A stretch of 64,000 bases of DNA from Bacteroidales bacterium (GTDB lineage: Bacteria > Bacteroidota > Bacteroidia > Bacteroidales > UBA3824): positions 1 through 64,000 of the forward strand of contig JAKSUC010000007.1 of the NCBI GenBank assembly GCA_024413595.1. The letters are read 5' to 3'. Below are positions 9,626 to 55,235 of this stretch, in pieces. The translations under genes were made by a program, and so were the position numbers. The number at the start of each line of letters is the position of its first letter. Position 1 is the stretch's first letter. Under the pieces are notes generated by a model. That model did no database searches. It worked only from the letters and a program-made list of their open reading frames with translations, and was not told the DNA's origin.

Positions 9626-10870
9626 TTATACAAAAAATTCAACACCTAATAATGTAATGTCATCGAACAGAGAGGTGTTAGAACGTTGAATATCTAATTC
9701 TTTAATAATATCGGAAATAGTATCTTTGATAGATTTTGAGTTTGCAACATTTTTTTCAACCACTTTTTGCCCATAGTCAGGAATGTTTTCTTTTTCAAGT
9801 TCAACCACTCCATCAGTAAAACATAAAAGTTTACATTCGTGGTCTAAAACAATTTTTCCTTCTGTTACATTAGGAATTTCGTCCAGCATTCCAACTCCAG
9901 GACAACCAGCAGTAAGATATTCTAATTTTCCAGTTTTTTTATAATAAATAACAGGAGAATTATGTCCTGCGTTAACGTATCTAAGTTCGTGAGTATTAAA
10001 ATTATATCTACCAATGAATAATGTAATAAATCTATCTCCATTAGCATTTCGAACAATAATTTTGTTTAATCGACGAACAAGAGTTGTTAATTCCATTTCA
10101 GGAATAAACAATGCTTTTAAACTTGCTTGAAAATTAGACATTAAAATAGCAGCCGACATACCTTTACCCGAGACGTCAGCAATGCAGAAAAACATTTCGT
10201 CTTTAGATAAATAATCAAAATCGTAATAATCACCGCCCACTTCAAAATGAGGAAGATAGAATGGATTTACCGACACTCTATTGTCGTTAGCAAAAATGTC
10301 AGCTTTCGGAACTAACATTTTTTGCATTTCAGAAGCCATTTCCATTTCTTTTTTTATACGTTCTTGTTGCATATTAACTTCGATAAGACGTTTATTTTCG
10401 ATAGCAACAATAATAACGTTTGTTAACGTTTGTATAAAATGAATGTGTTTAATAGAAGGGCTAATTCCAGTTTGTTCTTCTTCAAAGTCGCCAATTAAAA
10501 CGTATGCTAACGGGTTGTTGTCTTGAATAACAGGAATAATGAAATCGAAAGCACTATATTTAGTTTTAGGAATAGACAGAGTAATTTCCATGTCGGTGAA
10601 TTCAACTAAATCACGTTCAGGATCAATATTACAATATTCTTTAGGAGCAACTCCCGATTTAAGAATAATATTCCATTTTTTATTTTGATAGCTATAAATT
10701 AAAACTTTACCAATATGTAGTTCATCAGTAAGAAGAGTGCAAAAAGTATCTAACAATTCTTCAACAGAGGAATTGTTGTTGATTGCTTTAGTAATATTAA
10801 GCAGTGTTTTTAACTTGTAATTACTAAATTTCAACCTATCCAGAGACGATTTGGCATTGGATTCAGTCAT
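9626..10870 (-). CDS. GAF-domain SpoIIE-type PP2C protein phosphatase
   Basis: A 414-residue cytoplasmic phosphatase with no membrane helix. A GAF-like sensor spans roughly residues 20-165, a short coiled coil (IEVNMQQERIKKEMEMASEM) follows, and the PP2C/SpoIIE domain runs from about 185 to the end. Manganese-binding motifs are intact: GGDYYDF, IADVSGKGMSAA, CFTDGVVE and the C-terminal DDITLLGVEF. Family members of this shape (RsbU-like) dephosphorylate anti-anti-sigma or SiaC-type proteins in response to a ligand at the GAF domain. No anti-sigma or STAS gene is adjacent. It is followed on the other side by efp, with a terminator between, so it is probably its own unit. Confidence 0.9.
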   Translation of the reverse strand: MTESNAKSSLDRLKFSNYKLKTLLNITKAINNNSSVEELLDTFCTLLTDELHIGKVLIYSYQNKKWNIILKSGVAPKEYCNIDPERDLVEFTDMEITLSIPKTKYSAFDFIIPVIQDNNPLAYVLIGDFEEEQTGISPSIKHIHFIQTLTNVIIVAIENKRLIEVNMQQERIKKEMEMASEMQKMLVPKADIFANDNRVSVNPFYLPHFEVGGDYYDFDYLSKDEMFFCIADVSGKGMSAAILMSNFQASLKALFIPEMELTTLVRRLNKIIVRNANGDRFITLFIGRYNFNTHELRYVNAGHNSPVIYYKKTGKLEYLTAGCPGVGMLDEIPNVTEGKIVLDHECKLLCFTDGVVELEKENIPDYGQKVVEKNVANSKSIKDTISDIIKELDIQRSNTSLFDDITLLGVEFFV

Positions 10871-11649: not shown

Positions 11650-12810
11650 TTAAATTTGATAACCTCCAATTAAAATATCGTCCATTTGAATAAAATCACC
11701 GCGCCAATTGTCGAAATAGTTTAATAGTTCTTGTTGTTGTTGAGTTGAGTTTAGTTTTTTTTGATTAAGTTCAATTAGTAGATTTTTGAAACGTCCGTAT
11801 GTAATTTTTTTGTGAGAATTTCCGCTAAATTGGTCAGGAAATCCATCTGAAAACATGTATATATAATCTCCTTTTTTTGCTTTTGCTTCAATTGTTTCAA
11901 ATTCTTTGAGTTTTGGATATAATCCAATTGGATTTCTAACCGCTTTAAATTCAGTAAGTTCACCATCGCTAACAAGATACATTGGATTGTTAGCACCTGC
12001 AAATTTTATGTCAAGAGTTTTTGTGTTTAAAATACAAAGAGCCATGTCCATACCGTCTTTTGGATCCATGGTTCCCATTTGTTGTTTTAAAGTGGTGATT
12101 ATGAAAGTTCTTAGATTTTCTAATATGTCGGAAGGTTTAGTAAAAATATTAATATTAGCACACACTTCGTTTAATAAGGCAATACCTAACATACTCATAA
12201 AAGCACCAGGAACGCCATGTCCTGTGCAATCGGCAACTGTAAAAATAACTAAATCGTCTTGACGTTTCATCCAATAAAAATCACCAGAAACAATTTCGCG
12301 TGGTCGCCACATGATAAAATAATCAGAAAAAGTTTCTTTTAAAATATCCGTTGATGGTAATGCAGCATCTTGTATTCTTTTAGCATATTGAATGCTATCA
12401 GTTAATTCTTTATGTTTGTTTTCTATTTCTTTTTTAAGAATAGAAATACGTTGTTTGTCTTTTTGAATAGAAATACTCATATCCCACAATTTTTTGTTTC
12501 GTTGAGATAAGTCTTCTTTTTCTAATTCAATTTTTTTCTGTTCTACTAATTTGTTATCTTCTTGTATGTTAGAAAAATCATTGTTTTGAGAAATTTGTTT
12601 AATAGTTTTATCTTCTAAAAGTTGATTATAAATGTAGTTAATTCTAGTTAATTCGCTATCATAAAACGAAATTTCTTGTTTGTATCTTTTTTCGATTTTT
12701 CTATTACTTTTGATAATAGCACGACGCTTTGTTACTATTACTATAATTAATGAAATAAGTAATAATAACACAATAAATATCAATATAATATCTAAAATAG
12801 AAAAAATCAC
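11650..12810 (-). CDS. Membrane-anchored SpoIIE-type PP2C protein phosphatase
   Basis: A 386-residue phosphatase. An N-terminal hydrophobic helix (about 5-27) is followed by a long coiled coil (about 35-140) and the PP2C domain (about 150-386). Metal and active-site motifs are intact: SGDFYW (D177), VADCTGHGVPGAFMS (D194), SDGFPDQF (D322) and MDDILIGG (D377/D378). Translation starts at GTG 12810, two bases after the stop of the nSTAND gene; no in-frame ATG precedes the membrane helix. It is the last gene of the DUF4062/TIR-like, nSTAND1, PP2C operon and probably converts the ATPase's signal into dephosphorylation of a switch protein. That role is inferred from operon position. Confidence 0.92.
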   Translation of the reverse strand: MIFSILDIILIFIVLLLLISLIIVIVTKRRAIIKSNRKIEKRYKQEISFYDSELTRINYIYNQLLEDKTIKQISQNNDFSNIQEDNKLVEQKKIELEKEDLSQRNKKLWDMSISIQKDKQRISILKKEIENKHKELTDSIQYAKRIQDAALPSTDILKETFSDYFIMWRPREIVSGDFYWMKRQDDLVIFTVADCTGHGVPGAFMSMLGIALLNEVCANINIFTKPSDILENLRTFIITTLKQQMGTMDPKDGMDMALCILNTKTLDIKFAGANNPMYLVSDGELTEFKAVRNPIGLYPKLKEFETIEAKAKKGDYIYMFSDGFPDQFSGNSHKKITYGRFKNLLIELNQKKLNSTQQQQELLNYFDNWRGDFIQMDDILIGGYQI

Positions 12811-12812
12811 AA

Positions 12813-15800
12813 TTAATATAAATTATTACCTATAATTAAATTGATTTCCTTTTCAGAAAGTTCTGAAATTTTCATATTATTAAGTTCATCAGCATAATGA
12901 TTAATATCAGTATTCCAATATCTAATAAAGTTTTCTTCAGTAAGAACAAAAACAATACCTTCTGAATTAAAATTAATTTCTTTTATTGGAAAATTATGTA
13001 GGCACATGTCGTCAATTTGAAAAGGTTTAGCAATTATGTCTTTAGAATTAATTAAAGAAATTCTATTGTCTGAAGAAGCAATAGCTATATATTTAGTTTT
13101 TTCGTCAAAAACAATTTTATTAATTTTAGAATGAGATGCTAAATTATCACCATCTTTAGTACCTGTTGAAATGTTTAAGTATTGAATATTTCCATTAGAA
13201 AAACATATAGCTAATTGTTTATTGTTAATAGCAGCCATATCAACAGTTTTCATATTGTTTTGGTGAAAAATTTCAATAATTTTATTATTAGTATAATTCC
13301 ATTTTAAAAGAATAGCATTGGCAGTTAAGATGTATGCTTCGTTACGACCGTAAGAATATATACTAGCTATTGAATTTTTAACATTATAAAAAGCAATAGG
13401 TTTTCTATCAGGATCTTGTGGATCTATAACAAGACATTTACCATTTTGATATGCAATAGCTAAACTGTTTCCATCAGACGAAATAGAAGCACTTTTTATA
13501 ATATCACCTTGAATATCAAGTTTTGTTTTTTCTTGTTTATCAATATCAATAAAATAAGAAGAATTTTCAGTGTTTGTATAAACCAAATATTTAGAAGAAA
13601 TAAATATAGATTTTTTTACAATTTCTTTGCTAATAAATTGATTAATACGTTGAATTTCGTGAATTCTTTTTGATATATTATTATATTCAATTATTTGAGC
13701 ATTTTCGGTAAAAATCCATAAATTATTGTTTAAATCAATATAAAACGAAGAAATAGGTTCGTTTGTAACTTTAAGAGGTTTAAATAAGTTGTTGTTGTCA
13801 AAAGTGTAAAGCATAGCTTCAAAAAGTTCAGCGTCGTTATGAGATATATTGTTATTTTTGTTATAAAGATATGCCGTATAAACCATTCTTAAATTCATTT
13901 TTTTATCGCCATATTGACCTTTAGCTTTCATAGCTAAAGTGTTGGAAATAGCAATTTTGTAATATTTAGAAACCGAGTCATGTGCACTTTGAGCGAGTAG
14001 TTTTTGTTGTTCGGCTATTTCTCTAGCATCGTTAGCTACCATTCTTTCGAATTCAGCGTTACCCAAATTATTCATAGCCAATTCTCTAAGAGAGTCAGCT
14101 TCGTCTCTTCTATGTTCAGCCAAACGTCTAGCTCTTTCAGATTCTTTTTGAGCTTTTTGAGCTTGTAAAGCCAAAATTCTAGCAGTATCACGTTGAAATT
14201 TAGCATCATTATTAGCTCTTTCAGCCATTCTTTGAGAGTTTTCAGCAATAAGTTTTTGACGATTTGCCGAGTCAGCTTGTTGTTGAGCATAAATAGATTT
14301 TTCTTCAGCATTTTGTTTTTCACTTAAAGCCCAAGATGACACAATTATAAGAGCTATAACAAAAGCAGTTAGCGAAAACATAGCAATTGTTATTTTTCTA
14401 CGTTTAGAACGTTCTTGAGTTTGTATAGCTTCTTCGCTAATTTCTAGAAAGTCTTGACAATTTTCGTATTGAGTTTGAGCATCTCTAAGTTTTTTTCGAG
14501 CAGAAGATTGACTATTATCGTATTTTAAAAATCTGTATTGATTAGGTTTACTGATTATATACCAATTATTAAAATAAGTGTAAATACCAGAAGATAACAG
14601 ATATTTAGGATTACAATCACTATTGAGCCAACGGTTCATTTGTGTAGAAAAATCGTGATAATCTTTCAAAAATGTAACCTCTTCTTCTTGCCACACAGTT
14701 AAACGTTGCCAGTTTCTCAGTAATGCTTCGTGAGTTACGTCTAAAATTGTATCTCCAGATAAGTATTGAGTATCAATCCTATTAGGATCAATAAAAGGTT
14801 GAATTAAAGAGTTTTCTGGTGTTCTAAAGATATTAATAACACCACAAACAGTAGCATTTGTAATGTTATCTTTGTTAATAATACCAGTAATTTCATTTAT
14901 TGAGCAACGATTTCGAACTTGACGATTGTTGTCAACTTTAGTTAATGATTTGAAAACAGTTTCAATAATTTCTTTACTTTCATCAGGATTTATGCTTTTT
15001 TCAGCCCAAACAGCATTTTCAAGAAAATAATTATAAGCAGATTCGTATAAAATGCCAGCATGAGCATTTAAAACATTATTGATACTTGGATTTTCAAAAT
15101 ATTTATATTGATAATCTGGTAATTGGCAAAACCATTGATTAAAATCATCTAATTCTTCGTTACTTAAAACATCAGTTGAAATACCAGCAATTTTTGCTAA
15201 ATGAATTAAATCTAATTGTTTTTTGCCATTATCGGCCATTTTCCACAATAAATTTAAGGCATGTTGCAAAACAGGTAATTGGTCAAAACTGCTGTTAAGA
15301 TTATTTATGATGATTTCAGTTAAACGAGACGAAACACTACCACCAGCTAAAATAGCAGGTTGTTCTATAACTTGTCGAATTTCAGTTCTTTTTAGTTGAG
15401 GAACAAAAAATTGACTATATGCAATATATTCAGGAAGATTTTTAAATACAGTACATTGACTAATAAAGTCACTTCGCATTGTGAATATCACATAAATAGG
15501 TAATTTTTCGATTATTGATATTCTAATGGTTTCTAATAAAAGGTTAATTGTAGTGTAAGATTCTTCAGAAGGAATACCATTGTTAAAGTTTTCAGAATTT
15601 GTGAAAATCTCTTCAAATTGATCAGCAATTATTAATAAGTTTTTACCTCTGTTAGAAATATTTTCACCTTGATTAACAAAGTAATCTGAATTTTTATATA
15701 AGTCAACTAAAGACGAAAACCCAAGTTTTAATTCGTTTAAAGTTTTTTGGTTATCACAATTTAAATTTTCAGAAAACGATTCACTTAAAGAATATAGTGG

Positions 15801-16058
15801 ATTTTTTTGAGGTTTAAAATCCACAACAATCCAACTATTAAACGTAGATTTACAAAATCCAGCTCTAATATTAGGAACAACTCCAGCATAAACCATTGAC
15901 GATTTACCATCACCGGAAGCTCCAGTAATAAAAGCCATTTTGTTTTCTTCTAACAACTTAATAATTTGACGTATGTGCAAATCTCTACCTTTAAAGAATA
16001 TGGATTCATGTTCAGTAAAGGGGCGTAAGCCAGGATATGGACATAAGTCTGTTGTCAT
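12813..16058 (-). CDS. nSTAND1-type ATPase with transmembrane helix, coiled coil and WD40-like C-terminus
   Basis: A 1081-residue signalling NTPase. The N-terminus CPYPGLRPFTEHESIFFKGR is the hallmark of the nSTAND1 family. Walker A is GASGDGKSS (K52), Walker B is LLIIADQFEEIF (D146), and helical STAND sub-domains extend to about residue 550. A membrane helix (about 560-580) is followed by a heptad-rich, Ala/Gln/Arg-rich coiled coil (about 584-700) and a repetitive beta region (about 730-1060) that looks like a degenerate WD40 propeller. STAND proteins are NTP-driven molecular switches that oligomerise on sensing a ligand. It overlaps the upstream DUF4062/TIR-like gene by 4 bases (ATGA) and precedes the PP2C gene by 2 bases. 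The propeller would be the sensor if family rules hold; the trigger is unknown. Confidence 0.88.
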   Translation of the reverse strand: MTTDLCPYPGLRPFTEHESIFFKGRDLHIRQIIKLLEENKMAFITGASGDGKSSMVYAGVVPNIRAGFCKSTFNSWIVVDFKPQKNPLYSLSESFSENLNCDNQKTLNELKLGFSSLVDLYKNSDYFVNQGENISNRGKNLLIIADQFEEIFTNSENFNNGIPSEESYTTINLLLETIRISIIEKLPIYVIFTMRSDFISQCTVFKNLPEYIAYSQFFVPQLKRTEIRQVIEQPAILAGGSVSSRLTEIIINNLNSSFDQLPVLQHALNLLWKMADNGKKQLDLIHLAKIAGISTDVLSNEELDDFNQWFCQLPDYQYKYFENPSINNVLNAHAGILYESAYNYFLENAVWAEKSINPDESKEIIETVFKSLTKVDNNRQVRNRCSINEITGIINKDNITNATVCGVINIFRTPENSLIQPFIDPNRIDTQYLSGDTILDVTHEALLRNWQRLTVWQEEEVTFLKDYHDFSTQMNRWLNSDCNPKYLLSSGIYTYFNNWYIISKPNQYRFLKYDNSQSSARKKLRDAQTQYENCQDFLEISEEAIQTQERSKRRKITIAMFSLTAFVIALIIVSSWALSEKQNAEEKSIYAQQQADSANRQKLIAENSQRMAERANNDAKFQRDTARILALQAQKAQKESERARRLAEHRRDEADSLRELAMNNLGNAEFERMVANDAREIAEQQKLLAQSAHDSVSKYYKIAISNTLAMKAKGQYGDKKMNLRMVYTAYLYNKNNNISHNDAELFEAMLYTFDNNNLFKPLKVTNEPISSFYIDLNNNLWIFTENAQIIEYNNISKRIHEIQRINQFISKEIVKKSIFISSKYLVYTNTENSSYFIDIDKQEKTKLDIQGDIIKSASISSDGNSLAIAYQNGKCLVIDPQDPDRKPIAFYNVKNSIASIYSYGRNEAYILTANAILLKWNYTNNKIIEIFHQNNMKTVDMAAINNKQLAICFSNGNIQYLNISTGTKDGDNLASHSKINKIVFDEKTKYIAIASSDNRISLINSKDIIAKPFQIDDMCLHNFPIKEINFNSEGIVFVLTEENFIRYWNTDINHYADELNNMKISELSEKEINLIIGNNLY

Positions 16059-16918
16059 TTTTTATTGTTTTCTAAAATATTGTCATAATACATTTTAATG
16101 TCTAAAGGCAAAATACTTTTTTCGTTAACAATTAAAGGAATAATTTTTTTAAGTTGATTAAAATTTTCAGTATTAGCGTGTTTGCTATTAGCCACAAATA
16201 ATAATGGAACTTTACTGCTATTACCACCGATATTTTTCCAAATTTGCTGAGCAAAAGATTCTGCCCAATCTTCGGCGTAATCAAAATAAATTATTCCTAA
16301 TTTACAATTTTGAATTTGTCGAGAAATAAATTCTGCATAATCAGTATTTGTAGTTATGTCAACTTCTAATTTAATAATAGTTTGAATATCTTCTAACATT
16401 CCAACTATTTCAAGAGAAGTGTCGTGGTCTAACGAATTAAAAATAAACAATATATCTGCTTTTTCGGTTTTTGAAGTTACTTGAGATTTTGTGTTCATAA
16501 TAGAACGTAAATCTTCAACAAAAACAATTTTTGAAGTTAAATCAGAATATATAGTATTTTCAGCAATATCTCGTTTAATTTCGTTAATATATTTGTTATT
16601 TTCAGTGATATATCCTAAAGGATTCCACAAAAACATTTTATAGTTGTTGTTTCTTAAATCTTTTGCAATTTTATAATGAGTACTCGCAAAAGAATTATTT
16701 GAATTATATATATCAGAATTACCTAAAATATGAATAGAACAATCTGTATTTTTCATAATATTAAGTTCAGTATCATAATCACCATTTTCATTAGATTCTA
16801 TAACAGATAAACCAGCCTTAACAAGAATTGATTTCAATGTTTGGCGAAAATTTACCATATCAGGCGAAACTGATGCTAAAAATACTGAAATTTGTTGAGT
16901 ATATAAATTCAAAAACAT
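16055..16918 (-). CDS. DUF4062-like / TIR-like two-domain protein, first gene of the nSTAND operon
   Basis: About 287 residues. The N-terminal half (QQISVFLASVSPDMVNFRQTL) resembles the DUF4062 Rossmann-like domain, whose usual signature is VFISSTFxDM. The second half (from about residue 148, KADILFIFNSLDHDT, to about 255) resembles the TIR-like domain found next to DUF4062 in nSTAND proteins, including the segment before IYFDYAEDWAESFAQQIWK. I do not see a clear TIR catalytic Glu, so NADase activity cannot be claimed. An in-frame TTG three codons earlier (16927) is rejected because it lies inside the promoter -7 element. The gene overlaps the nSTAND gene by four bases. Both domain assignments are pattern recognition at low identity. 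Confidence 0.72.
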   Translation of the reverse strand: MFLNLYTQQISVFLASVSPDMVNFRQTLKSILVKAGLSVIESNENGDYDTELNIMKNTDCSIHILGNSDIYNSNNSFASTHYKIAKDLRNNNYKMFLWNPLGYITENNKYINEIKRDIAENTIYSDLTSKIVFVEDLRSIMNTKSQVTSKTEKADILFIFNSLDHDTSLEIVGMLEDIQTIIKLEVDITTNTDYAEFISRQIQNCKLGIIYFDYAEDWAESFAQQIWKNIGGNSSKVPLLFVANSKHANTENFNQLKKIIPLIVNEKSILPLDIKMYYDNILENNKK

Positions 16919-16924
16919 AACTGA

Positions 16925-16956
16925 CAAATGTAATGTAAAATATTAGACAAACCAAA
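16925..16956 (-). promoter_or_regulatory. Promoter of the TIR-like/nSTAND/PP2C operon
   Basis: On the minus strand, TTTG at 16956-16953, 20 bases, then TACATTTG at 16932-16925. The ATG at 16918 is only six bases past the -7 element, so the mRNA may be leaderless. Confidence 0.6.
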
Positions 16957-28475: not shown

Positions 28476-28549
28476 AAACCTAGACGGGATTCAAACCCGT
28501 ACCTCAGGAATCGGACTCCTATATTCTATTCAGCTTAAACTACTAGGTC
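28476..28549 (-). tRNA. tRNA-Arg (anticodon CCG)
   Basis: A 74-nt cloverleaf on the minus strand. The acceptor is GACCTAG paired with CTAGGTT, the T arm is ACGGG-TTTGAAT-CCCGT, and the anticodon loop GTCCGAT gives anticodon CCG for codon CGG. The discriminator base would be U, which is unusual, and CCA is not encoded. The 5' end overlaps the stop codon of siaC by seven bases. Confidence 0.85.
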
Positions 28550-28938
28550 GTGCTTTCTTTTTCTATTAATTCTAGAGGAAGTTTTAGACATTCTTTATAA
28601 CCTAAACCTTCATCAAGCATGTCCTCGTCGTAGCTTTCATAAATCCATTTTATTGAGATTTCTTTTCCTAATTTGATAAATTCTTCTAATTTGGCCAACA
28701 TTTCGTATATTACTTTATTAGAAGCTGAACTTAATATTGAAAATTCAAATTCAACATTTATATTTCCATTCCATGTTGGTATTTTTTCTGCTAATATATT
28801 GATGATTGGCACATAAAATTCTACGGCATTTTCTGGAAATGAAGGGCCTTCTATTCTGACAAATAGTTTTTCGCCATCAATTATTATTGAAGGTGTGTCG
28901 TCTGTTGATGAAATTATTATTTTTTCTTCGTTTACCAT
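28543..28938 (-). CDS. siaC: SiaC-family (DUF1987) regulatory phosphoprotein
   Basis: About 131 residues, starting at ATG 28938; the in-frame TTG at 28944 is less likely. The sequence matches the DUF1987/SiaC family: an N-terminal STDDTPSIIIDG, then GPSFPENAVEFYVPI, the helix-capping serine cluster LSSASNK (about residues 69-75), and a C-terminal WIYESYDEDMLDEGLGY. In Pseudomonas, SiaC is phosphorylated by SiaB and dephosphorylated by the PP2C SiaA, and unphosphorylated SiaC activates a diguanylate cyclase. Here the serine cluster would hold the phospho-site. No siaB or GGDEF gene is in the window, but three PP2C phosphatases are. The TAG stop lies inside the downstream tRNA-Arg. Confidence 0.87.
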   Translation of the reverse strand: MVNEEKIIISSTDDTPSIIIDGEKLFVRIEGPSFPENAVEFYVPIINILAEKIPTWNGNINVEFEFSILSSASNKVIYEMLAKLEEFIKLGKEISIKWIYESYDEDMLDEGLGYKECLKLPLELIEKESTT

Positions 28939-29001
28939 ATTCAAATTGTCGTTTTTGTGCTTTTATAGCAGTTTTAAAAATAAATTCAAAATTACGAAAT
29001 T

Positions 29002-53213: not shown

Positions 53214-55235
53214 TTATATAATTTCAACACCAAGAACGGTGATGTCGTCGCGTTGTTCACATTCGCAACTAAATTTATTTAAATCATTAAGAATAAATTC
53301 TTTTTGATCGTTCATAGGTAAATTAACAGAATTGTGAATAGCTTCAACAAGACGTTTTATAGTATATCTTTTACGTTCAGGATTGCTTTGGTCTCCAATT
53401 CCGTCAGATGATAAATATAGTCTATCACCTTTATAAATTTCTACAGATTTATCAATAAAATCAACTGCCGACTCATGATGACGAAATTTACCACCAATAC
53501 ATTTTCTAGAAGTTTTGAGAGTTTCCATTTCGCCAGATTTTGAGTTGAAACGATGAACTGGAAATTTAGCACCTTCGTAAACAAGAGCAAATTTATTATC
53601 TTGACTTTTTTCAATTTTACAAAGAATAGCTTCCATACCATCGTCATTATCAGTTTCTTCTTGACGTAATGATTTACGAATATTCATATTAAGTTCGTCA
53701 AGAATTTTAGCAGGTGACAAAATTTGTTGTTGTTTAACAATTTGATCAAGGAAATTAATACCAATTAAACTCATAAAAGCACCAGGAACACCGTGTCCTG
53801 TACAGTCAACCACTGCAACAAAATTGATTTCTTTTTCTCCATCAAACATATTGTGATACCAATAAAAGTCTCCACTCACAATGTCTTTTGGATTATAAAT
53901 AATAAAAGAATTGAAAACGTAATTTAAGTCTGCTAAAGTTGGTAACATTGCATTTTGAATAGTTTGAGCAGAACGAATGCTACCTAATGTATTATCAGTA
54001 CTACGTTGTAATTTTATGTTTAATTGGCTTAAATAAGAAGATTGACTTTCAAGTTCTTCTTTTTGAGCAAGAATTTCAGCAGTTTGTTCGCAAAGCATAG
54101 TGTTTTGCTTTTTGTTGTTGATATACAATCTAAAAATAATAATACCAAGAACAACTGCTCCACCCAAAATTATTCCAATTAAAAGAATAATTGAACTTTG
54201 AGTAGAAATTCTAGAAATCATATTTTTTAGTTGTGCATCTTGTCTTAAAAGTCTTTCGTCTAATTCTCTAGAATTGTTTAATTGTTTATAAAGACCAACA
54301 GAATTATCTCTATCAATAGGAACTGTATTTAAATCAATATATTTTTTTACATCTTTACCATTAAGAATTTGAATTGCAGTTTGAATAGCTTCATCACTAC
54401 CGTTAGGATATAAAATAGTGGCATCAATAACTCTTTTAATAACAGCATTAATACCACCTTCTTCTGAAGGAACACCATCAACACCAACGATAAAAATTTT
54501 ATGACTAATATTTTTATCTTTAATAGCTTTGCTAACACCAATAGCCATATCGTCGTTGTGAGAAAAAACAACGTTGAAATTAGTGTCAATGTCTAATAAT
54601 TCAGACATTTCGTTATAAGCCTCATCCGTACTCCAATTGCAATGAAGAGTATGTTTTAAATTAAATTTGTTTTTTGTAATTTTATATTCTTCAATAGCTT
54701 TGTGAAAACCAGAACTTCTATCAATAGCAGCAGATGCGTTGTCTTGACCAAACACTTCAACATAATTAATGTTTTCTTTAAAATTGTTGTCAACAATTTT
54801 AGCTGCATCTACACCAATTATACAATTGTCAGCTCCAATAAAACAAGTATAATTTGTATCTTTAGTTTTGCGGTCTATTTCAATAACAGGAATACCTTTT
54901 TTATAAACTTTTGCAATTGGTTCTGTTAAAGAGTCAACATCATTTGGCGAAACCAACAATAAATCTATACCACAATGTACAAGAGAGTCAATATCTTTGA
55001 TTTGTTTTGAGCAATTGTTTTCTCCGTTTGTAACAATAAGTTCGATGTTACCTTCTTGAATAGCATTAGATTTTATTCTACGTGTCATTTCTTTACGCCA
55101 TTGAGTATCATCGGCGCATTGAGATAATCCAATTTTAAATGTTTTTACCTCTTCTTCTCTATTACACATAATTGCAGTTAAGGCAATTATCATTAAAATA
55201 GAAAAAACTAATAATATGTTGATAGATTTTTTCAT
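53214..55235 (-). CDS. Receptor phosphatase: periplasmic sugar-binding-like domain fused to SpoIIE-type PP2C
   Basis: A 673-residue membrane receptor. An N-terminal hydrophobic segment (about 5-24) is followed by a type-I periplasmic binding domain (about 32-325) of the ribose/galactose-binding class: FKIGLSQCADDTQWRKEM, LLLVSPNDVDSL, GIPVIEIDRKT, CFIGADN, VVFSHNDDMAIGV. A second helix (about 345-370) and a coiled coil (about 372-420) lead to the PP2C domain (about 425-673) with SGDFYWY, VVDCTGHGVPGAFMS, SSDGIGDQ and DDITVLGVEI. All phosphatase metal motifs are present. A small solute outside would thus control protein dephosphorylation inside. The ligand is unknown; no sugar-utilisation genes adjoin. 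Confidence 0.9.
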   Translation of the reverse strand: MKKSINILLVFSILMIIALTAIMCNREEEVKTFKIGLSQCADDTQWRKEMTRRIKSNAIQEGNIELIVTNGENNCSKQIKDIDSLVHCGIDLLLVSPNDVDSLTEPIAKVYKKGIPVIEIDRKTKDTNYTCFIGADNCIIGVDAAKIVDNNFKENINYVEVFGQDNASAAIDRSSGFHKAIEEYKITKNKFNLKHTLHCNWSTDEAYNEMSELLDIDTNFNVVFSHNDDMAIGVSKAIKDKNISHKIFIVGVDGVPSEEGGINAVIKRVIDATILYPNGSDEAIQTAIQILNGKDVKKYIDLNTVPIDRDNSVGLYKQLNNSRELDERLLRQDAQLKNMISRISTQSSIILLIGIILGGAVVLGIIIFRLYINNKKQNTMLCEQTAEILAQKEELESQSSYLSQLNIKLQRSTDNTLGSIRSAQTIQNAMLPTLADLNYVFNSFIIYNPKDIVSGDFYWYHNMFDGEKEINFVAVVDCTGHGVPGAFMSLIGINFLDQIVKQQQILSPAKILDELNMNIRKSLRQEETDNDDGMEAILCKIEKSQDNKFALVYEGAKFPVHRFNSKSGEMETLKTSRKCIGGKFRHHESAVDFIDKSVEIYKGDRLYLSSDGIGDQSNPERKRYTIKRLVEAIHNSVNLPMNDQKEFILNDLNKFSCECEQRDDITVLGVEII

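What the first reader, a model, noticed from the sequence alone, without database searches (positions are those of the whole stretch)
11650..16956. Three-gene operon: DUF4062/TIR-like protein, membrane nSTAND1 ATPase, membrane PP2C phosphatase
Gene overlaps of 4 bases and a 2-base gap bind the three genes tightly. The ATPase combines an nSTAND1 P-loop domain, a membrane helix, a long coiled coil and a WD40-like tail. Its first partner looks like DUF4062 plus a TIR-like domain, and its last is an intact SpoIIE-type PP2C. STAND proteins with TIR-like partners are commonly conflict or apoptosis-like sensors. Coupling to a phosphatase suggests instead, or in addition, a switch that reports a trigger to a phosphoprotein such as SiaC or a STAS protein. 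I do not know a described system of this composition.
Basis: partly seen in the sequence, partly recalled or inferred. Interest (0 to 1): 0.75.

Follow-up and report, generated by a model that had tools for sequence, protein, structure and literature searches.

The report
Membrane STAND–SiaA-phosphatase signalling operon
In gut-type Bacteroidales and their relatives, a three-gene operon appears to wire an immune-receptor-like ATPase that reaches into the periplasm to a SiaA-type protein phosphatase, so it looks like an undescribed envelope-sensing signal switch rather than the suicide-type defence its parts first suggest.

Summary
The operon is real. On the minus strand it runs DUF4062 protein (P1), membrane nSTAND1–coiled-coil–β-propeller ATPase, membrane SpoIIE/PP2C phosphatase. 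P1's start is ATG 16918, not 16956.

It recurs widely in Bacteroidales: P1 sits directly upstream of the ATPase in 41 of 65 testable loci, and a PP2C lies downstream in 48 of 57. In many relatives the same operon also encodes an outer-membrane β-barrel and a lipoprotein.

The topology is consistent (72/72 ATPases have one TM; 71/72 more positive on the N side). It puts the NTPase in the cytosol and the coiled coil plus propeller in the periplasm.

P1's first domain is DUF4062 by profile, a family reported in 2026 to be TIR-like NADases. The catalytic Glu position holds Gln/His/Asp in 63/63 P1 proteins (His here). The ATPase site (69/69) and phosphatase site (59/59) are intact. P1's second domain is α/β, TIR-like by fold only.

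The phosphatase is closest to Pseudomonas SiaA (6K4E, E=5e-32). The genome carries 15 SiaC, 14 SiaB-like domains and about 39 SpoIIE domains.

Best reading: a trans-envelope STAND switch with a SiaA-type output, built on a degenerate NADase adaptor. I found no description of this combination. Function is untested.

The parts
16055..16918 (-). P1: soluble protein, DUF4062 domain (residues ~10-125; His at the catalytic-Glu position) plus a second alpha/beta domain (~150-287). TTG 16927 is an alternative start.
12813..16058 (-). nSTAND1 ATPase (1081 aa): NTPase 1-300, helical region, one TM 556-574, coiled coil ~575-740, beta-propeller ~741-1081; N-in/C-out, so propeller predicted periplasmic
11650..12810 (-). 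Membrane-anchored SiaA-type SpoIIE/PP2C phosphatase (386 aa): N-terminal TM 8-26, coiled-coil linker, DSIxYAxxIQxA motif, intact catalytic Asp residues
10985..11548 (-). EF-P-like protein, next gene downstream on the same strand; syntenic in relatives but not proposed as part of the mechanism
   Evidence: named from sequence
9626..10870 (-). Second, soluble SpoIIE phosphatase; syntenic neighbour in close relatives, relation to the triad unknown

Best explanation
The operon encodes a trans-envelope signal switch. Inferred order of events: (1) the periplasmic beta-propeller and coiled coil of the ATPase sense an envelope or outer-membrane state, which in many relatives would be relayed by the co-encoded outer-membrane barrel and lipoprotein; (2) this drives ATP-dependent rearrangement or oligomerisation of the cytosolic nSTAND1 domains, as in other STAND proteins; (3) P1, a degenerate DUF4062 protein that has lost its NADase Glu, serves as an adaptor or ligand-binding subunit rather than a toxin; (4) clustering or remodelling of the coiled-coil linker activates the neighbouring membrane PP2C, which dephosphorylates a SiaC-type phosphoprotein and switches its partner. 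Shown: gene set, conservation, topology by the positive-inside rule, active-site status, SiaA similarity, SiaB/SiaC abundance. Inferred: all interactions, the signal, the substrate and the phenotype.
For: Conserved operon with correlated divergence of the three proteins (Mantel r 0.88-0.95 over 39 operons; shared phylogeny would also give this). Single TM in 72/72 ATPases, K/R 5.8 on the N side vs 2.5 on the C side; PP2C N-out/C-in. Relatives add an OM barrel (signal peptide) and a lipobox protein in the same operon, and in some T9SS-tailed proteins. Walker A/B and Arg invariant in 69/69; PP2C catalytic Asp invariant in 59/59; DUF4062 Glu position Q54/H7/D2/E0, register confirmed by profile alignment. 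PP2C best PDB hit 6K4E at 5e-32, identified as SiaA-PP2C in PMC7647112; NCBIfam SiaA 1.5e-48 over PP2C plus linker. 15 SiaC, 14 SiaB-like domains, 40 SpoIIE matches. All 18 P1-positive genomes of the order sample have SiaC (10-21 copies) vs 87/198 overall. Propeller evolves fastest (29% mean identity vs 70% for NTPase). Precedent for linker-driven phosphatase dimerisation: PMC12143880.
Against: No SiaB/SiaC gene is co-operonic here, and with about 39 SpoIIE proteins in the genome the pairing is not specified. The SiaC co-occurrence is not phylogenetically corrected and may reflect signalling-rich genomes. The window's own operon lacks the OM barrel and lipoprotein, so its sensing partners are unknown. 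WD40-type propellers are usually cytosolic. About a third of the ATPase paralogues have no adjacent P1, so P1 may be dispensable or act in trans. No complex was modelled.
Confidence: 0.55

Rival explanations
1. Anti-phage or abortive-infection system: the STAND ATPase senses invasion and P1 (DUF4062) depletes NAD+ or otherwise kills the cell, with the phosphatase as a regulator.
For: DUF4062 proteins (Swarozyc) are reported NADase defence proteins (PMC13174449). STAND and TIR proteins are common in conflict systems (PMC7159879). Some three-domain relatives of P1 keep an N-terminal TIR with a Glu. Paralogues are expanded in rumen Bacteroidales.
Against: Catalytic Glu lost in 63/63 P1 proteins, and the window P1 lacks the extra TIR domain. 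No PADLOC match for the ATPase and only weak PDC-S09 hits (E 6e-4) for P1. Fixed chromosomal position between IleRS and EF-P in close relatives. No phage match and one distant plasmid match. Envelope-protein partners and a sensor predicted to face the periplasm.
Confidence: 0.15
2. Outer-membrane/T9SS surface-biogenesis regulator: the ATPase monitors assembly or export of specific surface proteins encoded beside it, and the phosphatase adjusts their expression.
For: Relatives co-encode an OM barrel, lipoproteins, and in some loci T9SS-tailed or other lipoprotein genes. Propeller predicted periplasmic.
Against: The window operon and its closest relatives have none of these downstream genes. The cargo genes are variable. 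It is a narrower version of the best explanation.
Confidence: 0.2
3. Convergent neighbourhood: P1 and ATPase form a working pair, while the PP2C and envelope genes are separate functions that travel in the same transcription unit.
For: P1 plus ATPase occurs without an adjacent PP2C in the long-form loci L259-L264. Gene order after the ATPase varies between PP2C-first and OMP-first.
Against: PP2C is within 5.5 kb downstream in 48/57 loci across divergent families, and its divergence tracks the ATPase (r 0.95).
Confidence: 0.1

Closest known systems
SiaABC(D) partner-switching pathway of Pseudomonas aeruginosa
   Same: PP2C domain plus linker is SiaA-type (6K4E 5e-32; NCBIfam 1.5e-48). Membrane-anchored phosphatase; SiaB-like and SiaC genes abundant in the genome.
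   Different: No SiaA periplasmic/HAMP sensor half; instead a separate STAND ATPase is the likely sensor. No siaB, siaC or siaD in the operon. Below the full-length SiaA equivalog cut-off (166 vs 700 bits).
Swarozyc / DUF4062 TIR-like NADases (PMC13174449)
   Same: P1 domain 1 is DUF4062 by profile.
   Different: Catalytic Glu missing in all 63 P1 proteins; separate STAND partner; no portal-binding auxiliary domain detected.
TEP1/NWD1-type DUF4062-NACHT-WD40 proteins
   Same: Same combination of domains (DUF4062, STAND-type ATPase, WD40-like propeller), as described in PMC13174449.
   Different: Split over two genes; nSTAND1 rather than NACHT; a TM between ATPase and propeller; PP2C partner.
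nSTAND1 conflict systems of multicellular bacteria (PMC7159879, PMC10907252)
   Same: nSTAND1 ATPase with a C-terminal sensor region.
   Different: No EAD, peptidase, CHAT, vWA or MoxR components; searched passages do not describe a SpoIIE/PP2C partner.

Membership tests
DUF4062 (Pfam PF13271) | Profile match above the curated cut-off | tested here: met
   Met for the P1 family: 43.6, 37.2 and 24.8 bits vs 24.7 in orthologues; window P1 itself 17.1 bits; hhalign 95.8%
DUF4062 NADase / Swarozyc | Conserved catalytic Glu | tested here: not met
   Q54/H7/D2/E0 in 63 P1 proteins; His84 in the TTG-start numbering of the window
DUF4062 NADase / Swarozyc | NAD+ hydrolysis and anti-phage activity | not testable with these tools
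TIR domain (P1 second domain) | TIR profile match | tested here: not met
   No Pfam TIR hit; hhalign vs N-terminal TIRs 0.3%
TIR domain (P1 second domain) | TIR fold | tested here: inconclusive
   AF2 pLDDT 90.6; Foldseek hits TIR RPS4/RRS1 (TMq 0.62-0.66) and many Ras-like GTPases (0.50-0.63)
STAND NTPase (nSTAND1) | nSTAND1 profile with intact Walker A/B | tested here: met
   7.1e-66; GxxGxGKS and D-Q-F-E-E invariant in 69/69
SpoIIE/PP2C phosphatase | Profile and metal-binding Asp residues | tested here: met
   2.9e-16; Asp residues invariant in 59/59
SiaA (equivalog) | Full-length SiaA with its sensor half, above cut-off | tested here: not met
   165.9 of 700 bits, only positions 391-653 of 658
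SiaABC partner switch | Dephosphorylation of a SiaC phosphoprotein | not testable with these tools
   SiaC and SiaB homologues present in the genome; pairing unknown

The most novel reading that the evidence does not exclude
A previously undescribed class of bacterial transmembrane signalling: an immune-receptor-like STAND ATPase with its sensor propeller in the periplasm, linked to outer-membrane proteins, controls a SiaA-type Ser/Thr phosphatase through a catalytically dead NADase-family adaptor, i.e. cell-death machinery turned into an ordinary envelope-to-cytosol relay.
Probability: 0.4. Interest if true: 0.8.

Novelty: new variant of a known kind. Interest (0 to 1): 0.62.

Why it matters
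STAND ATPases and DUF4062/TIR proteins are mostly discussed as immune and cell-death devices. Here a conserved lineage keeps the ATPase and a phosphatase intact while losing the NADase residue in every member examined, and places the sensor on the far side of the inner membrane. If right, it would give Bacteroidales a receptor type for envelope signals outside two-component and ECF/anti-sigma systems, supply a candidate input for their large SiaB/SiaC networks, and offer a bacterial two-gene counterpart of the DUF4062-ATPase-WD40 layout of TEP1 and NWD1.

Tried and rejected
Whole-length Foldseek of P1 gave only poor two-domain Rossmann-like matches (TMq 0.17-0.31), so the second domain was modelled alone. 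PDB profile search with P1 found only E~0.9 TLR/TIR hits. PDB search with the ATPase found nothing. PADLOC gave no defence assignment for the ATPase. Profile comparison did not link domain 2 to TIR, DUF4062 or domain 1. STAS was checked as an alternative substrate family: 4 matches only. Literature searches for nSTAND1 with PP2C, DUF4062 with STAND, and periplasmic STAND/WD40 found no description of this gene set in the held library. First idea that the downstream 9626-10870 phosphatase carries a GAF domain was dropped: no Pfam support.

Full report
Observation. The window holds three minus-strand genes in order P1 (16055-16918, alternative TTG start 16927), a 1081-aa ATPase (12813-16058) and a 386-aa phosphatase (11650-12810). 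P1 and the ATPase overlap by 4 bases; the ATPase and phosphatase are 2 bases apart. Pfam supports nSTAND1 (7.1e-66), several beta-propeller models for the C-terminus, and SpoIIE (2.9e-16); DUF4062 is sub-threshold in the window P1 but above the curated cut-off in orthologues, and a profile-profile alignment joins P1 domain 1 to canonical DUF4062 at 95.8%.

Conservation. Across 198 genomes of the order, close P1 homologues were found in 19 genomes, of which one (G039) looks spurious, and full-length ATPase relatives mostly in the same genomes. A named-genome scan returned 76 loci, many from rumen Bacteroidales with several paralogues per genome. Among distinct ATPase genes with enough flank, P1 is directly upstream in 41 of 65 and elsewhere in the locus in 9 more; a PP2C lies within 5.5 kb downstream in 48 of 57, an outer-membrane barrel in 37 of 57. 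Two common layouts are P1-ATPase-OMP-lipoprotein-PP2C and P1-ATPase-PP2C-OMP-lipoprotein. The closest relatives (about 62% identity) share the window's layout with IleRS divergently upstream and EF-P plus a second SpoIIE phosphatase downstream, which argues for vertical inheritance. P1 had no phage match and one distant plasmid match.

Topology. Every one of 72 distinct ATPases has one predicted TM near residue 560, with mean K/R of 5.8 before and 2.5 after it (71 of 72 in that direction). The ATPase domain must be cytosolic, so the coiled coil and propeller are predicted periplasmic. The phosphatase has an N-terminal TM followed by positive residues, giving a cytosolic catalytic domain. The associated OMPs carry signal sequences and most associated lipoproteins a lipobox. 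A long-form OMP relative matches OMP_b-brl_2 and a long-form lipoprotein relative matches a beta-propeller lipoprotein family.

Active sites. In canonical DUF4062 the conserved Glu of S-x-x-x-(L/M)-E-(Y/F) aligns to a position that is Gln in 54, His in 7 and Asp in 2 of 63 P1 proteins, and never Glu. The equivalence to the E97/E1008 catalytic residue of the NADase paper (PMC13174449) is by alignment, not by a solved structure of this family. In contrast Walker A, Walker B and the TMRSD arginine are invariant in 69 ATPases, and the metal-binding Asp residues in 59 phosphatases. Long-form P1 relatives carry an additional N-terminal TIR, with a Glu in some; the window P1 lacks that domain. P1's second domain is confidently modelled as five-stranded alpha/beta (pLDDT 90.6) but its fold matches TIR domains and Ras-like GTPases about equally, and sequence profiles do not connect it to TIR.

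Output. The phosphatase's best solved relative is 6K4E at 5e-32, next best 0.003. PMC7647112 identifies 6K4E as the PP2C domain of P. aeruginosa SiaA, which dephosphorylates SiaC. NCBIfam SiaA matches at 1.5e-48 over the linker and PP2C only, well below the equivalog cut-off. The genome has 15 SiaC, 14 SiaB-like DUF6272 domains, and 40 SpoIIE matches, two of them pieces of one frame. One SiaC lies in the window at 28543-28944. All 18 convincing P1-positive genomes in the order sample have 10-21 SiaC copies, against 87 of 198 with any (Fisher p 1.2e-7 without phylogenetic correction).

Mechanism. The most economical model is envelope sensing by the propeller, ATP-dependent rearrangement of the STAND domains, P1 as a non-catalytic partner, and activation of the membrane phosphatase through its coiled-coil linker, the last step by analogy with RsbU (PMC12143880). 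The signal, contacts, substrate and phenotype are all inferred. The SiaC link is the best available guess for the substrate but is not specific, since many phosphatases compete for it.

Verdict. The composition was not found in the held literature. Each part belongs to a known family; the arrangement, the periplasmic propeller, and the universal loss of the NADase Glu alongside intact ATPase and phosphatase are what is new. I therefore rate it a new variant of a known kind.

Noticed in passing
genome G000; window 28543-28944 (-): 15 SiaC genes, 14 SiaB-like DUF6272 domains and about 39 SpoIIE phosphatase genes in a 3.9-Mb genome, an unusually large SiaA/B/C-type network; one SiaC lies in this window.
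   Followed up: partly
window 53214-55235 (-): A periplasmic-binding-protein (Peripla_BP_4) domain fused to a SpoIIE phosphatase, a possible sugar- or ligand-gated phosphatase receptor.
   Followed up: no
L064, L065, L067, L070, L071: A recurring sister cluster: MFS/HEAT protein, HAMP-PP2C, TIR-DUF4062-type protein, nSTAND1 ATPase, OMP and lipoprotein.
   Followed up: partly
L259-L264: In other families of the phylum a long-form P1 with an N-terminal TIR precedes two tandem ~1350-aa nSTAND1 ATPases, without an adjacent PP2C.
   Followed up: partly
L074 (G055:C133), L101, L135: P1 and the ATPase-PP2C pair lie in the same locus on opposite strands, as if an inversion had split the operon.
   Followed up: no
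L161, L164: Arrays of ~300-aa proteins between the ATPase operon and P1; a representative from L161 has a T9SS sorting tail.
   Followed up: no
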